The notes under the pieces were generated by a model that was given only the letters and a program-made list of their open reading frames with translations, had not been told where the DNA came from and searched no databases. DNA of 64,000 nt from Pedococcus dokdonensis. Lineage in GTDB: Bacteria; Actinomycetota; Actinomycetes; Actinomycetales; Dermatophilaceae. Shown here piece by piece: positions 54,198 to 62,881 of this stretch (position 1 is its first letter; every line of letters starts with the position of its first letter). Position numbers and translations under genes: made by a program. The stretch spans positions 2,232,001 to 2,296,000 of the forward strand of contig NZ_LT629711.1 in NCBI RefSeq assembly GCF_900104525.1, written 5' to 3'.

Positions 54198-54347
54198 TCA
54201 TGTCCAAGCCTTGTCCACCATCTGGGACGGCTGTCGTTCGTGTGAACGCCCTTGAACAAGTCCTTACGTTCCGGCCCTGTTTCCGCAGGTCACACAGCGA
54301 TAGCGTCCGAGACGTGCGGCAAGGCGCCGCGGGGAGAAGAGGACGAC

Positions 54348-54641
54348 ATGGCTGAGTTGTCACGGCTTCCGGGACCTGTTGCCGACCTGTGGAACTGGCA
54401 GCTCGAAGGCTCCTGTCGACAGTTCAACCCCGAGGTCTTCTTCCACCCGGAGGGAGAGCGTGGCCCGGCCCGTCGGTCGCGAGACTCGCAGGCCAAGGAG
54501 GTCTGCCTCTCCTGCCCCGTCCTCAAGCAGTGCCGTGAGCACGCGCTCCGGGTGCGCGAGCCCTACGGCGTGTGGGGCGCGATGACCGAGGACGAGCGCG
54601 AGCAGCACTACGCCGGCCACACCGTGCCCGCCGCCAGCTGA
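54348..54641 (+). CDS. whiB3: WhiB-family iron-sulfur regulator (WhiB3-like)
   Basis: 97 residues. Four Cys ligands for a redox-sensitive 4Fe-4S cluster: one in EGSCRQFNPEVFF and C-x2-C-x5-C in EVCLSCPVLKQCREH. The G[I/V]WGG-type loop is YGVWGAMTEDER. The N-terminus LPGPVADLWNWQLEGSCR closely recalls WhiB3, and its position between guaB and groEL matches whiB3 in mycobacteria. WhiB3 binds the primary sigma factor and controls redox and lipid genes. ATG at 54348 with GGGGAGAAGAGG upstream. The 225-base gap before it carries the promoter, in which I find no unambiguous boxes. Confidence 0.9.
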   Translation: MAELSRLPGPVADLWNWQLEGSCRQFNPEVFFHPEGERGPARRSRDSQAKEVCLSCPVLKQCREHALRVREPYGVWGAMTEDEREQHYAGHTVPAAS

Positions 54642-54663
54642 CCGGCGACCTACACTCGGCTGC

Positions 54664-54897
54664 GTGAGCAGCCCCGCAGCGCCCCTCGAGGTCCCGATCC
54701 GCGACGAGTCCATCCGGCTCGGCCAGCTGCTCAAGCTGGCGGGGGTGGTCGACGACGGCGCCATGGCCCGGTCGGTGATCGAGCTCGGTGAGGTCACCGT
54801 CGACGGTGCCGTCGAGACCCGCCGCGGTGCGCAGGTGCGCCCCGGCCAGGTCGTGACGTATGGCGGTCAGTCGCTGACCGTGGTCAGCGACACCTGA
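54664..54897 (+). CDS. S4 RNA-binding domain protein
   Basis: 77 residues, essentially one S4 domain: IRLGQLLKLAGVVDDGAMARSVIELGEVTVDGAVETRRGAQVRPGQVVTYGGQSLTVV. Resembles the YbcJ/YaaA class of free-standing S4 proteins that bind structured RNA. GTG start 22 bases after whiB, so possibly co-transcribed. The next 250 bases hold the hairpin tandem array. Confidence 0.85.
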   Translation: MSSPAAPLEVPIRDESIRLGQLLKLAGVVDDGAMARSVIELGEVTVDGAVETRRGAQVRPGQVVTYGGQSLTVVSDT

Positions 54898-54912
54898 CCC
54901 TCGCCGTCGCCT

Positions 54913-55131
54913 ACTCATGCAAAAGGCGAGTTAGCGCCGCCGTCGCTAACTCATGCAAAAGGCGAGTTAGCGCCGCCGTCGCTAACTCATGCAAAAGGCG
55001 AGTTGGCGCCGCTTTCGTCGCCCACTCATGCACAAGGCGAGTTAGCGCCGCCGTCGCCCACTCATGCACAAGGCGAGTTTGCGCCGCCGTCGCCCACTCA
55101 TGCACAAGGCGAGTTAGCGCCGCTGCCGCCG
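54913..55131. repeat. Six-copy 36-bp tandem repeat with hairpin units
   Basis: Units start at 54913, 54949, 54985, 55024, 55060 and 55096; the period is 36 except for one 39-bp step (a 3-base insertion). In the intact copies GCTAACTC and GAGTTAGC form an 8-bp stem with an 11-base loop ATGCAAAAGGC. Later copies read GCCCACTC, which weakens the stem. All copies keep GGCGAGTT-GCGCC. The array fills the gap between the S4 gene and the convergent sensor gene. There are no variable spacers, so it is not a CRISPR. Confidence 0.9.
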
Positions 55132-55144
55132 CCCGTCGGTCACC

Positions 55145-56212
55145 TCACGGGAAGCGGTCCAGCGGACCGGTGATGGCGTCGACGGCCGGTGGGTCGAGGA
55201 CGATCGTGATGTGCCGCTGGCCGTTCACGTGGAAGTGCGGGAGGCACTGGGGCGACGACGTGAGCCACACCCGCTGCCCTGCCGTGGTGACTGCTCGCAG
55301 GACGTAGGTGAGCGGCAGGTGCGCCTCGGCGTTGCACCCGGGGTCCAGGGCCGCGGTCGTCCCGGTGCGGGCCAGGCTGGCATTCAGCAGCGCGAGGTCT
55401 CGCTCACCGAACGGGCCCCGTCGCGGGTACAGCATCGTGGGCACGGTGTCCGAGGTGACCGCGAGCGGGTCGATGGCCGGGTAGGTGCACGACGACGCGG
55501 ACGCGAGCACCGTCCCCTTCGGCAGCTCGACCGGGTTGGAGTCGGGGTCGTGCAGCGCGGACGGGCAGGTCGGGTAGTCGTCGAGGGGTGGCAGGGCGGC
55601 GGACCAGTCGGCGGACTGCTCGGCCAGGCCGACGTAGTAGGAGTCGAGGAACACCCAGCCGTCGCAGAGCAGATCGGTGTTGAGGTAGGTCCTGGCCTGT
55701 CCCTGCCGGTCACGGACGCTCACGGTGAACGCCGGACCATGCGGCCGGTCCCCGCACTTCTTGGCGTCCGGGTCACTCGCGAGCCGCCAGTTGAGGAGGT
55801 CGAGGGTGGCCGGGCGAACGACCGCTTCGTCGGGCGGCAGCGAGCCCGGCCAGACCGAGTCGCCTCCGACCAGGGCACAGACGAGCACCGCGTCGGCCCG
55901 CTCGCTGAGCGGCGAGGCGGGAACGCCGCCCAGCGGGCTGATCGTCGACTGGAGCTCGGGGCACGGGTTGATCGGCCGGCTCTGGCTCGGTGACGGCACC
56001 GCCGGCTCGGCCGCGCGGTTGCGGAACACCCCCGAGGCGCCGACGCCGACCACCGCGACGACAACGGCGGCGCCGGTCGCCACGGCCGCTCGGCGCAGCC
56101 GCCGGGTGCTGATGGCTTGCCGCCGGGCCGCGACCGCCAGGTCCGAGGTGTCGAACTGTTCCGGGACCGCGGCGTGCATCGCGTCCCTCAACCGGGTCTC
56201 GAGGTCAGTCAT
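55145..56212 (-). CDS. Single-TM sensor/anti-sigma-like partner of SigE-family sigma factor
   Basis: 355 residues. Cytoplasmic N-terminus of ~40 residues (LETRLRDAMHAAVPEQFDTSDLA), one TM helix ~42-63, and a ~280-residue extracytoplasmic domain with about ten cysteines (likely disulfides). The domain is homologous to that of the 56895-58382 product: AVLVCA, SVWPGSLPPDE, GPAFTV, CDGW, SYYVGLAEQ, CPSALHD and LPKGTVLASASSC have counterparts there. The start overlaps the sigma gene by 8 bases. It should hold the sigma factor at the membrane or sense a signal for it. No zinc-anti-sigma HxxxCxxC motif is present. Confidence 0.75.
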   Translation of the reverse strand: MTDLETRLRDAMHAAVPEQFDTSDLAVAARRQAISTRRLRRAAVATGAAVVVAVVGVGASGVFRNRAAEPAVPSPSQSRPINPCPELQSTISPLGGVPASPLSERADAVLVCALVGGDSVWPGSLPPDEAVVRPATLDLLNWRLASDPDAKKCGDRPHGPAFTVSVRDRQGQARTYLNTDLLCDGWVFLDSYYVGLAEQSADWSAALPPLDDYPTCPSALHDPDSNPVELPKGTVLASASSCTYPAIDPLAVTSDTVPTMLYPRRGPFGERDLALLNASLARTGTTAALDPGCNAEAHLPLTYVLRAVTTAGQRVWLTSSPQCLPHFHVNGQRHITIVLDPPAVDAITGPLDRFP

Positions 56213-56735
56213 GACGGGCCCCCTCGTCGACGAGCAGAAGTGGACTGTGGCGCAAGGTGGCGAACGCCCGCGCGCACTGGCTCTTGATGGTGCCGACGCT
56301 GCACCCCAGGAGCTCGGCGGCCTGTGCCTCCGTGAGGTCCTCGAAGTAGCGCAGCACCACGGCGGCGCGCTGGCCGCGGGGAAGGGTGGCGAGCGCGACC
56401 AGCAGGTCGCGTCGCAGCTCGGTGACGTCCTCAGGGGCGGGGCCGGCGGCGTTCGTGGGCTCCGGCAGGACCTCGGTGGGGTACTCGGCGTTCCACCGCC
56501 GACGCCACCAGGCGAAGTAGGTCGTCAGCATCACCTTGCGGACGTAGGCGTCGGGTCGGCCGTCGCTGTCGCGGGCGACCCGTGACCAGTGCGGCCACAC
56601 CTTCGCGAGCGCGGTCTGGACGAGGTCCTCGGCCCTCTGGTGGTCGCCGGTCAGCAGCCACGCGGTGCGCAGGAGGTCATGGCCTCGGGCTGCGACGTAG
56701 TCGTCGAAGCCGGGCGGTACCGCGGCTCGTTCCAT
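56205..56735 (-). CDS. SigE-family ECF RNA polymerase sigma factor
   Basis: 176 residues from the ATG at 56735 (GAGGTGG Shine-Dalgarno). Sigma region 2: FDDYVAARGHDLLRTAWLLTGDHQRAEDLVQTALAKVWPHW. Region 4: ALATLPRGQRAAVVLRYFEDLTEAQAAELLGCSVGTIKSQCARAFATLR with an intact HTH. This is the large actinobacterial SigE/ECF group named by family databases. It overlaps its membrane partner by 8 bases. The locus sits where mycobacteria carry sigD with its anti-sigma gene. Confidence 0.9.
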   Translation of the reverse strand: MERAAVPPGFDDYVAARGHDLLRTAWLLTGDHQRAEDLVQTALAKVWPHWSRVARDSDGRPDAYVRKVMLTTYFAWWRRRWNAEYPTEVLPEPTNAAGPAPEDVTELRRDLLVALATLPRGQRAAVVLRYFEDLTEAQAAELLGCSVGTIKSQCARAFATLRHSPLLLVDEGARHD

Positions 56736-56894
56736 CACGACCACCTCGTCCCGGCTCGGCCTCGTCTTCACACTTGTCAGAAGCGGCCGGGCGCCCTCTC
56801 AGGTTGTCAGCCACGGTCGACTTTCGCCTCCACCGTCGCGAACTCGTCCGGCGCCTGAGGTCTGGGAAGGGAGGCGCGACGCGGGGCCGGTTGG

Positions 56895-58382
56895 CTACCG
56901 GGCGACGAGGAGGCTGCGCAGCATGTCACCGGTCTGGTCGCTGAGCGCCCAGGTGTCCCGTGGGCGCCAGTCGACCGAGAGGCTGTCGGGGCAGCTGCCG
57001 CTCAGCTCGACCAACCGGCCCTCGAAGGTGCGCGCCTCCACGACGAACAGCGCGCCGCTGGCCGGACACACCGTGGCGGTCTGGGCGCGCGAACCGGACC
57101 GTCTCAGGTCGGCGTTCAGCTGGTCGAGCTGCGGCGAGCCCATCACGTTGGCGCGGACCGGGCGGAACTTCGGCAGCTCGCCCGGCACCGGCCTGGGGTG
57201 CAGGCACGCCGTGGCTGCCTCGAGGACGGTCCCCCGCGGCAGGCTCGGGCGCGCCGAGCCGGACGCGTCGGTGGTGCGACCCAGCACCGACGGGCAGCCG
57301 AGGAAGATGTCGTCGATGGATCCGGCGGCGCGCTGGTCCAACACGCCTTGTTCGGCCAGCGCCGTGTAGTAGCTGGCCAGAGCCGGCCAGCCGTTGCAGG
57401 CCAGACCTTCGTTCGCGTAGGCGCGGACCGTTCCGTCGATGCCCTGGAGCAGCAGCCGGAACGCCGGCCCGGTGGGCAGGGCGGGACACTCGGCGCCAGC
57501 CGTTCGGGGCGCCAGCACGAGTGCGTCGACGGCGAGCGGGGCACTCACCGGTGCGTCCGGCGGCAGGAACCCCGACCACACCGAGCCCTCGTCGGTCTGG
57601 GCGCACACCAGCACTGCTGCCACGGTCCGGCTCAGCGGCTCAGCGGTGACGGCCGGGGGCACCGGCGTCGCGGCCGAGGTCCGACAGGTCACGGCGGTGG
57701 CCGTCGGGGAGGGGACCGGCGTGACCCGGTTCGGTTCTCCGGCTGCCAGCAGCCCGCCGACCGCCACCGCAACAACTAGGGCAACGGCAGCGAATGCCCA
57801 GCCGCGCACCCCACGCCAGCGGGCGGCATACGGGCGGGACTGGTCGAGCAAGCCGGCCACGGAAGGATCCGGTGGTGGCAACAGCTCGAGGGCTGAGCGC
57901 AGGCTGTCCTCGTCGAGGCCGAGCCGGCCGCCCACCCGGTCGAGCGCGTGCACGCGGTGGCGGTGGGCGGTGGCGACGACGTCGTCGAGAGCGGCCGCCA
58001 CCTGAGCGTCCGAGAGTCCGTCGAAGGTCCACAGCACCAACGCCACCCGTTCGCGGGGGCCGAGCTCGGACAGGGCGCTGAGCAGGTCCGCGCGCGAGGG
58101 CGGGTCGGCCTGGGGAGTCGCCGGGGCGGCACTGCCGGGTCGGCGGTGGTGGTGCCGGAGGTAGCCGGCGACGACCGCGCGCCGCAGCTCCGCGTCGTAG
58201 GAGCCGGCGCCGACCTGCGAGAGACGGTGCCACTGCGGCCAGCTTCGGCGCAGCGTCGTCCGGACGAGCTCCTCGGCCGCACGGTCGTCGCCCACCAGCA
58301 GCCAGGCCGTCCGCAGCAGGTCGCTGCCCCGCGCGACGACGTACTCGTCGAAGCTGGGAGGTTCGGCGAACCGCTCCGCCAT
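56895..58382 (-). CDS. Membrane-tethered sigma factor: ECF sigma fused to TM helix and sensor ectodomain
   Basis: 495 residues. Region 2 at ~11-52 (FDEYVVARGSDLLRTAWLLVGDDRAAEELV), region 4 at ~100-152 (LSELGPRERVALVLWTFDGLSDAQVAAALDDVVATAHRHRVHALDR). One TM helix ~194-215, and an extracytoplasmic Cys-rich domain ~230-495 homologous to the separate sensor at 55145. The region-4 HTH is degraded: the SVGTIKS recognition helix of its neighbour is replaced by DVVATAH. It could be a tethered sigma released by proteolysis, or a sigma-like decoy. Start ATG 58382 or GTG 58388. No frameshift separates the parts: one continuous frame. Confidence 0.82.
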   Translation of the reverse strand: MAERFAEPPSFDEYVVARGSDLLRTAWLLVGDDRAAEELVRTTLRRSWPQWHRLSQVGAGSYDAELRRAVVAGYLRHHHRRPGSAAPATPQADPPSRADLLSALSELGPRERVALVLWTFDGLSDAQVAAALDDVVATAHRHRVHALDRVGGRLGLDEDSLRSALELLPPPDPSVAGLLDQSRPYAARWRGVRGWAFAAVALVVAVAVGGLLAAGEPNRVTPVPSPTATAVTCRTSAATPVPPAVTAEPLSRTVAAVLVCAQTDEGSVWSGFLPPDAPVSAPLAVDALVLAPRTAGAECPALPTGPAFRLLLQGIDGTVRAYANEGLACNGWPALASYYTALAEQGVLDQRAAGSIDDIFLGCPSVLGRTTDASGSARPSLPRGTVLEAATACLHPRPVPGELPKFRPVRANVMGSPQLDQLNADLRRSGSRAQTATVCPASGALFVVEARTFEGRLVELSGSCPDSLSVDWRPRDTWALSDQTGDMLRSLLVAR

Positions 58383-58444
58383 GGTCACCCCACTCTGCGC
58401 AACCTGCCTCCCGGCATCGTATGCCGCGGGTGCCGGGCATGCGG

Positions 58445-58487: not shown

Positions 58488-60119
<1,632 letters not shown>

Positions 60120-61631: not shown

Positions 61632-61677
61632 GTCGTGTGCCTGAGCGCGCGCCCTGGCCCGCGCTCAGGCACACGAC
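61632..61677. repeat. 46-bp hairpin repeat, copy 1
   Basis: GTCGTGTGCCTGAGCGCG (61632-61649) pairs perfectly over 18 bp with 61660-61677 around a 10-base loop, eight bases after the GNAT stop. Identical to copy 2 (62808-62853) except one base at the end of the loop region. It may serve as terminator and/or a REP-like dispersed element. Confidence 0.9.
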
Positions 61678-61764
61678 CACGATGGGCACAACCGTTCGGG
61701 TGTCTCGGGCGTCTGGGTGGATGAGGGCCCGATCGGGTCCGCGCACGAATCGGGGGGTTCCACA

Positions 61765-62802
61765 GTGAAGTCGATCCACGCAGTCATCGCCGTCTCCGCC
61801 GCCGCCCTGCTGGCCGCCGCGCCGGCCGCGGCGCTCAGCCTGCGCCCGGCGCCGGACCGGGCGGCACCGGGCACCGTCGCGAGTGCCAGCCCCAGCCGGA
61901 CGGCCCCGGCAGCAGGGGCAATCACCCCCGTCGCCTCCGCGACAGCCGTAACACCCAGCAGGCCTTCGTCAGCGACTCCTCCAGGACAGTCCGCCGCCAC
62001 GACGGTCCGTCCCTCCGCCGCGACGACCGGTCCCACGGTCGGCAGCCGACCGCGAGCGGTCGTGTCCGAGCTGCCGAAGGCCTCGACAGCCAAGCCCAAG
62101 GCCCCCTCGAACGACACCGCCCGCAAGGCCGTCGCTGTCCGCGCGCTCCCGACCACCCTTCGGCTCGACGTCGCGGGCGCGACCCTCGACTCCCTCGAGT
62201 CCGGGCTGGCTGCCGACTGCGGCTTCCCGGCCACCGACCGGGCGGTCTGGTACCGGGTCGACGACCCGAGCGGCCTCGGCTTCGTCGTGGACGCCTCGGG
62301 TTCGGACCACCGGGTGGGGATCGCGATGCTCGGCGGCGACCCTCGCGACAACGTCCTGATGGGCTGCAGCGGCGGGTCGGTGCTGACGGCGTCCGGCGGC
62401 CCCGCCGGACCGTTCTACCTCGCGGCGCTCTCCGACGCGCGGACCGCGACCCACCTCGAGCTGGCCTTCCGAGCGCTTCCGGCGCCCGCCGCCACGGTCA
62501 CGCTCGACGCCGTCGGCGCGCTCGACGGGGGCGGCGCACGGCTGAGCGGCACCTACTCCTGCACCGGCTCCGGCTCCCCGACCACCGTGACGATCTCCGG
62601 GCGGCTGTCCCAGGGCGGGACCCAGGGGATCTCCTCCCCCGTCGACGGGACGTGCGACGGGGCGACCCACGCGTGGAGCCTGCTCGTGACCGGGCCGCAG
62701 GCGTTCTCGACCGGCACCGCCCAGGCCGTCGTCACTGCGAGTGCCTGCTCCGGGCCGGGCTGCACCAACAAGACCGCCCAGGGCACCGTCACCCTCTCCT
62801 GA
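61765..62802 (+). CDS. Secreted protein of unknown function
   Basis: 345 residues from the GTG at 61765 (GGGGGG Shine-Dalgarno 8 bases upstream). Signal peptide KSIHAVIAVSAAALLAAAPAAALS, then an Ala/Thr/Pro/Ser-rich low-complexity stretch (~30-125). A first beta-rich domain follows (~130-245; CGFPATDRAVWYRVDDPSGLGFVVDASGSDHRVGIAML), reminiscent of pre-peptidase C-terminal-like folds, then a ~100-residue domain resembling immunoglobulin/jelly-roll modules (GTYSCTGSGSPTTVTISGRLSQ; three to four Cys). No catalytic motif. Bracketed on both sides by near-identical 46-bp hairpins. Confidence 0.7.
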   Translation: MKSIHAVIAVSAAALLAAAPAAALSLRPAPDRAAPGTVASASPSRTAPAAGAITPVASATAVTPSRPSSATPPGQSAATTVRPSAATTGPTVGSRPRAVVSELPKASTAKPKAPSNDTARKAVAVRALPTTLRLDVAGATLDSLESGLAADCGFPATDRAVWYRVDDPSGLGFVVDASGSDHRVGIAMLGGDPRDNVLMGCSGGSVLTASGGPAGPFYLAALSDARTATHLELAFRALPAPAATVTLDAVGALDGGGARLSGTYSCTGSGSPTTVTISGRLSQGGTQGISSPVDGTCDGATHAWSLLVTGPQAFSTGTAQAVVTASACSGPGCTNKTAQGTVTLS

Positions 62803-62807
62803 CGAGG

Positions 62808-62853
62808 GTCGTGTGCCTGAGCGCGCGCCCTGGCCTGCGCTCAGGCACACGAC
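62808..62853. repeat. 46-bp hairpin repeat, copy 2
   Basis: GTCGTGTGCCTGAGCGC (62808-62824) pairs perfectly with GCGCTCAGGCACACGAC (62837-62853), six bases after the secreted-protein stop. 45 of 46 bases match copy 1, in the same orientation. Confidence 0.9.
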
Positions 62854-62881
62854 CGCGACGGCATACGCAACAATGCGCGAC

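What the first reader, a model, noticed from the sequence alone, without database searches (positions are those of the whole stretch)
55145..58382. Split and fused versions of the same sigma-sensor system side by side
Seen: the 56205 sigma and 55145 single-TM protein are separate genes. The adjacent 56895-58382 gene encodes in one frame the same order of parts: sigma regions 2 and 4, TM helix, and a homologous Cys-rich ectodomain sharing AVLVCA, SVW-G-LPPD, GPAF, SYY-LAEQ, CPS-L and LP-GTVL. Known: ECF sigmas with C-terminal TM extensions exist. Inference: gene fusion or fission after duplication. The fused form is a membrane-tethered sigma that would need proteolysis to act, or a decoy that competes for the signal or core polymerase.
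Basis: partly seen in the sequence, partly recalled or inferred. Interest (0 to 1): 0.75.

Follow-up and report, generated by a model that had tools for sequence, protein, structure and literature searches.

The report
Retired sigma factor fused to membrane sensor
In a soil actinobacterium, a gene-switch protein and its membrane sensor exist side by side both as two separate genes and as one merged gene, and the merged copy looks as if it has lost the ability to switch genes on while being kept by evolution for another, probably regulatory, job.

Summary
Window 56205-56771 (SigE-family ECF sigma) and 55145-56212 (single-TM, 8-Cys ectodomain) overlap by 8 bp. The neighbour 56895-58388 encodes sigma2, sigma4, the anti-sigma-like stub, TM and a homologous ectodomain in one frame (38% and 41% identity). 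It is no frameshift: 9 of 11 genus genomes carry it full length.
One slot (groEL-X-WhiB-guaB) shows the history: split pair alone (1 genus genome, 1 of another genus), split plus fused (this genome), fused alone (8), empty (1). Split is ancestral; the fused sigmas form one clade (100/99).
The fused sigma half has lost hallmarks: Gln of DLVQ 32/32 related sigmas vs 0/56 fused, Tyr of AYVR 32/32 vs 0/56, Ser of VKS 28/32 vs 0/56. A promoter-like motif precedes all 5 split sigmas of the genus and none of 9 fused genes. Yet sigma2 is the best-conserved part, under purifying selection, and the model resembles some anti-sigma-bound sigmas and PhyR.
Best reading: a membrane-anchored sigma mimic rather than an active tethered sigma; partner unknown. 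New variant of known sigma/anti-sigma fusions.

The parts
56895..58388 (-). Fused gene (497 aa from GTG 58388; ATG at 58382 gives 495 aa): sigma2-like, sigma4-like, anti-sigma stub, TM, ectodomain
   Evidence: ORF; 56 full-length rows (own protein included); conservation; AF2 model
58143..58355 (-). sigma2-like domain of the fused protein (residues about 12-82); most conserved part, 28 of 75 positions identical in at least 98% of 56 rows
   Evidence: dN/dS
57918..58097 (-). sigma4-like domain of the fused protein (residues about 98-157); family GTVKS motif replaced, R/H-rich helix
   Evidence: Pfam r4_2 18.2 bits, cut-off 25.7
57813..57917 (-). anti-sigma-like stub retained in the fusion (residues about 158-192), homologous to the N-terminus of split TM proteins
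   Evidence: alignment
57738..57800 (-). TM helix of the fused protein (residues about 197-217, by eye; AF2 helix 178-211 at low confidence)
56898..57695 (-). 8-Cys ectodomain of the fused protein
56205..56771 (-). Split SigE-family ECF sigma factor (188 aa from GTG; ATG at 56735)
   Evidence: TIGR02983 184.3 bits, cut-off 141.55
56782..56808 (-). Promoter-like motif GACAACCT-N14-CCGCT before the split sigma; only exact match in this genome
55145..56212 (-). Split membrane protein (355 aa): short cytoplasmic anti-sigma-like segment, TM, 8-Cys ectodomain; overlaps the sigma gene by 8 bp
58488..60107 (-). groEL, upstream border of the slot
   Evidence: PF00118; synteny
54664..54897 (+). 77-aa ORF (S4-like by eye, not family-scanned), downstream border of the slot
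   Evidence: place conserved by tblastn with its antisense ORF
54252..54641 (+). WhiB-family gene, downstream border of the slot
   Evidence: PF02467 84.5 bits

Best explanation
The fused gene is a retired sigma factor. An ancestral two-gene module (SigE-family ECF sigma plus membrane anti-sigma with an 8-Cys ectodomain) sat downstream of groEL. In one lineage the two reading frames were joined into one protein. Its sigma half then lost hallmark residues and the upstream motif of the split sigmas, but kept its fold and the cytoplasmic anti-sigma stub. It now works as a membrane-anchored sigma mimic. In the default state sigma2-sigma4 fold back on the stub of the same chain. A signal at the ectodomain changes this, and the mimic then exchanges partners: it takes up an anti-sigma stub of a related SigE-type system (in this genome the neighbouring TM protein is the obvious candidate), in the way PhyR takes up NepR. 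Shown here: homology, slot history, one clade of fused sigmas, residue and motif loss, purifying selection, predicted compact fold. Inferred: that the TM protein is an anti-sigma, the closed default state, partner exchange, identity of the partner, the signal.
Confidence: 0.42

Rival explanations
1. Membrane-tethered active sigma (IutY/ECF52-like): proteolysis in or near the TM helix frees the N-terminal half, which binds core RNAP and a new promoter set.
For: Same architecture as IutY and the ECF48/52/53 groups (PMC8999054 passages; PMC5411451 passages). Fold and purifying selection kept. Pfam region 4 in 20 of 56 rows; Lys to Arg is conservative.
Against: Gln of DLVQ, Tyr of AYVR and Ser of VKS are in 0 of 56 fused proteins. 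No copy of the split sigmas' upstream motif. Scores far below the SigE-family cut-off.
Confidence: 0.23
2. Membrane-bound one-component DNA-binding regulator (ToxR/CadC-like, recalled): the altered sigma4 helix-turn-helix binds DNA directly while anchored, without acting as a sigma.
For: sigma4-like HTH fold kept, with FixJ/EvgA-type structural neighbours and weak LuxR-family matches in 8 of 56; Arg/His-rich helix.
Against: sigma2, not the HTH, is the most conserved part (0.83 vs 0.68), unexpected if the HTH were the output.
Confidence: 0.15
3. Core-RNAP or ectodomain-signal decoy: the fused protein titrates polymerase or ligand and so dampens the neighbouring split system.
For: Homologous ectodomain and tandem arrangement in this genome; contig lengths 5853 and 7073 recur in the hit lists of both proteins, suggesting the same arrangement on two metagenome contigs (contigs not fetched).
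Against: Loss of the region 2.2 Gln speaks against core binding (role of that Gln recalled). 5 of 9 fused-bearing genus genomes have no close split pair.
Confidence: 0.12
4. Slowly decaying remnant without function.
For: Absent from G141 (empty slot) and from G145.
Against: Open and full length in 9 of 11 genus genomes; dN/dS 0.05-0.48 in sigma2, sigma4, stub and ectodomain in the 5 pairs reported (one 12-codon linker comparison gave 2.25).
Confidence: 0.04

Closest known systems
IutY of Pseudomonas putida (ECF243) and actinobacterial ECF48, ECF52, ECF53
   Same: One protein with N-terminal ECF sigma, anti-sigma part, TM and extracytoplasmic domain (PMC8999054, PMC5411451, PMC5826349; passages only)
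   Different: IutY keeps an active sigma freed by proteolysis; the same is expected for the others. Here hallmark sigma residues are lost, no zinc-finger or FecR-type domain shows in the Pfam scans, and the ectodomain is a different 8-Cys domain
PhyR sigma-like domain (alphaproteobacterial general stress response)
   Different: PhyR has a receiver domain as its switch; here the sigma-like part is joined to a membrane anchor and carries its own anti-sigma stub
CnrH-CnrY / class II anti-sigma factors
   Different: In the fused protein sigma and anti-sigma stub are one chain; class II membership of the stub was not shown
SigE-family sigma (TIGR02983) plus TM protein pairs of actinobacteria
   Same: The split pair looks like an ordinary member: of 20 loci outside the genus fetched for the TM module, 17 have a SigE-type gene directly upstream on the same strand (counted by hand)
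   Different: The fused form was seen full length only in Pedococcus/Phycicoccus where names are given and only in this genus of the family

Membership tests
SigE-family sigma factor (TIGR02983) | Score above the curated cut-off 141.55 bits | tested here: not met
   Fused: 75.9 bits; 5 further fused proteins 67.1-88.5; best E-value among 56 is 4.4e-25, the 88.5-bit one. Split sigma: 184.3, met
Functional ECF sigma factor | Region 2.2 Gln and region 4.2 VKS as in its own family | tested here: not met
   Q 0/56 vs 32/32; S 0/56 vs 28/32; K 0/56 vs 31/32, but R in 30/56 and R also in solved M. tuberculosis SigE. That the Gln contacts beta-prime is recalled (sigma70 Q406)
Functional ECF sigma factor | Recognisable region 4 helix-turn-helix | tested here: inconclusive
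   Pfam r4_2 precomputed for 20 of 56 rows; 18.2 bits vs cut-off 25.7 in the window's own
Functional ECF sigma factor | Directs transcription with core RNAP | not testable with these tools
   Needs in-vitro transcription
ECF48/ECF52/ECF53 fused sigma | Zinc-finger anti-sigma domain between sigma and TM (PMC8999054 passage) | tested here: not met
   No zinc-finger family in the Pfam scan of the window protein or among the families listed for 56 members
IutY type (ECF243) | FecR-like periplasmic domain (recalled), receptor partner | tested here: not met
   No FecR match in the Pfam scans; receptor partner not searched
IutY / ECF52 mechanism | Regulated intramembrane proteolysis frees the sigma | not testable with these tools
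   Needs tagged protein and site-2 protease mutants
PhyR | Sigma-like domain plus receiver domain | tested here: not met
   No receiver domain in the Pfam scans. The works-like claim is separate
PhyR-like mechanism | ECF fold with core and promoter residues degenerate | tested here: met
   Fold. Residues: with the region 4 caveats above. Anti-sigma binding itself not tested
Class II (CnrY-like) anti-sigma, for the stub | Two short helices before a TM helix | tested here: inconclusive
   About 41-residue stub; AF2 helices 3-14 and 23-54 (the latter running into the TM) at block pLDDT under 65

The most novel reading that the evidence does not exclude
A membrane-anchored, signal-gated sigma-factor mimic born by fusion of an ECF sigma with its own transmembrane anti-sigma: a one-protein partner switch that carries decoy sigma, anti-sigma stub and sensor together, with the ancestral two-gene, tandem and fused-only states preserved in one genomic slot.
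Probability: 0.36. Interest if true: 0.7.

Novelty: new variant of a known kind. Interest (0 to 1): 0.52.

Why it matters
Fused sigma/anti-sigma proteins are read as tethered sigma factors waiting for proteolysis. This case suggests that such a fusion can instead retire the sigma function and keep the fold as a membrane-bound mimic. Because split-only, split plus fused, fused-only and empty states all occur in one slot in close relatives, the change can be traced and tested step by step with gene deletions in soil bacteria.

Tried and rejected

In the tblastn synteny the row named S4dom used the antisense ORF 54523-54918(-); the likely gene is 54664-54897(+).

Literature: seven papers were seen as 'find' passages only, none whole (PMC8999054, PMC5826349, PMC7406223, PMC3174212, PMC5411451, PMC4598750, PMC8103513); the rest only in search listings. 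Searches showed, by titles and abstract starts, no membrane-anchored sigma mimic; that is not proof of absence.

Full report
OBSERVATION. The window lies in a 3.94 Mb single-contig genome (G000); the named relatives of its fused protein are Pedococcus/Phycicoccus. On the minus strand, after groES-groEL, come the fused gene (56895-58388), the split sigma (56205-56771) and the split TM protein (55145-56212). The split sigma passes the SigE-family cut-off (184.3 vs 141.55 bits); the fused one does not (75.9). Ectodomains are 38% identical over 229 aa and sigma parts 41% over 152 aa. Against 11 other TM proteins with the same N-terminal module the best E is 8.2 (fused) and 0.11 (split).

THE FUSION IS REAL AND CONSERVED. 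56 of 59 database hits, the window's own protein among them, are full-length fusions; only the 7996 candidates sharing most words were scored. In the genus, 9 of 11 genomes have it (G000, G138, G139, G140, G142, G143, G144, G146, G147); G145 and G141 do not. Of the other 175 family genomes none lists a match above 62.7 bits (at most 8 candidates scored per genome). In GTDB genome contigs 37 loci were found, 5 full length, all Pedococcus/Phycicoccus; this scan is pattern-based and not exhaustive.

ONE SLOT, FOUR STATES. groEL on one side and a small ORF, a WhiB gene and guaB on the other border the same slot. Fused alone in the slot: G138, G139, G140, G142, G143, G144, G146, G147 (in G142 about 3 kb of other DNA lies between groEL and the fused gene). 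Fused and split in tandem: this genome. Split alone: G145 (sigma stop and TM start overlap as ATGA). Empty: G141. Outside the genus, G037 has the split pair in the same slot, with groEL, WhiB and the small ORF. Hence split is ancestral. G142, G144 and G146 also have a split pair elsewhere; the TM protein of G146 matches only over its first 86 residues.

TREES. Sigma parts (47 rows: 21 fused, 6 split, 20 others): the fused rows form one clade (100/99); fused plus split lie together against the others (96/93). The deep root is not resolved by the tree; direction comes from the slot. Ectodomains (32 rows, two long rows dropped): the neighbour's lineage of 9 split rows separates from fused plus G145 plus G142 (100/100); the fused rows alone get only 41/0. 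The fused gene therefore seems to descend from a split pair of the G145 type. The neighbour is an older paralogue, or was acquired beside it; that is not resolved.

THE SIGMA HALF IS CHANGED BUT KEPT. In 32 SigE-type sigmas of the family (the 31 others have 31-70% identity to the split sigma) 49 positions are conserved at 75% or more. Fused proteins keep 77.5% of the 28 nonpolar and 40% of the 21 polar ones. 24 sigmas of comparable distance from the split sigma (mean identity 41%, fused 37.5%) keep 88% and 87%; as the positions were chosen from that set, this is partly by construction, and one reference keeps only 49%. Gln of DLVQ, Tyr of AYVR, Lys and Ser of VKS are in 0 of 56 fused proteins and Arg of VLR in 2 (references 32, 32, 31, 28 and 31 of 32). 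Lys became Arg in 30 of 56, and solved M. tuberculosis SigE has Arg there; it and RpoE keep the Gln and an aromatic at the Tyr position (read by eye). That the Gln is a core-contact residue (sigma70 Q406) is recalled. Pfam region 4 is still found in 20 of 56 fused rows. sigma2 is the most conserved domain (mean 0.83, 28 of 75 positions at 98% or more; sigma4 0.68 with 7 of 55; ectodomain 0.73 with 52 of 250). Nei-Gojobori dN/dS in 5 pairs (two pairs with G143 fell out) is 0.09-0.25 in the sigma2 core, 0.12-0.48 in sigma4 and 0.28-0.41 in the ectodomain. The fused chain also keeps the short stub that starts the split TM proteins, so sigma and complete membrane protein are joined.

PROMOTER MOTIF. 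GACAACCT-N14-CCGCT stands before 6 of 6 split sigma genes; it was read off these six, so this is by construction. Independent points: over 11 genomes there are 6 exact matches, 5 of them before the five split sigmas and one in G147 in a locus without a SigE match. TGACAAC-N16-CCGCT gives 7 matches, the same 5 plus 2, against 4 for the backward control. Sigma genes of Nocardioides and Pimelobacter relatives, not used for the motif, have GACAACC at a similar place (6 of 6 loci with 58-62% identity: L154-L158, L160). Fused genes have nothing better than 4 mismatches (8, G143 as L150). So the split sigma probably drives its own operon and the fused gene has left that loop.

MECHANISM. Most likely the fused protein is a membrane-anchored sigma mimic that works through protein contacts (0.42 for the whole account; that it is not an ordinary active sigma I hold at about 0.65). 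Its partner in fused-only genomes must be another SigE-type anti-sigma or the protein itself. That the TM module belongs to SigE-type sigmas is supported by 20 loci outside the genus fetched: 19 have a SigE-type gene within about 1.5 kb, 17 directly upstream on the same strand (counted by hand). Rivals: tethered active sigma, membrane one-component regulator, decoy for core or ligand, remnant.

NOVELTY. The one-chain architecture is known (IutY, ECF48/52/53; PMC8999054 passage). A sigma mimic is known (PhyR). Their combination, with its ancestors preserved in one slot, I did not find in the listings of the searches made.

Noticed in passing
window 54902-55130: Tandem array of about 6.3 copies of a 36-bp unit directly behind the split TM gene, holding terminator-like hairpins.
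   Followed up: partly
window 61632-61685 and 62808-62861: Two 54-nt copies, 94% identical, that read as a palindromic hairpin by eye and flank the gene 61717-62802 (DUF6299, 29.8 bits); terminator or REP-like element.
   Followed up: no
L071 6650-7480 (G146): TM protein matching the split TM family over its first 86 residues only, with an unassigned ectodomain, next to a SigE-type sigma: possible sensor-domain exchange on a constant stub.
   Followed up: partly
L062 6043-9036 (G142): About 3 kb of extra DNA between groEL and the fused gene; none of the other fused-bearing slots compared has it.
   Followed up: no
window 56782-56808: The split sigma's promoter-like motif has a single exact site in the genome, its own; its other targets, if any, are not recognisable this way.
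   Followed up: partly
[not shown]
   Followed up: partly
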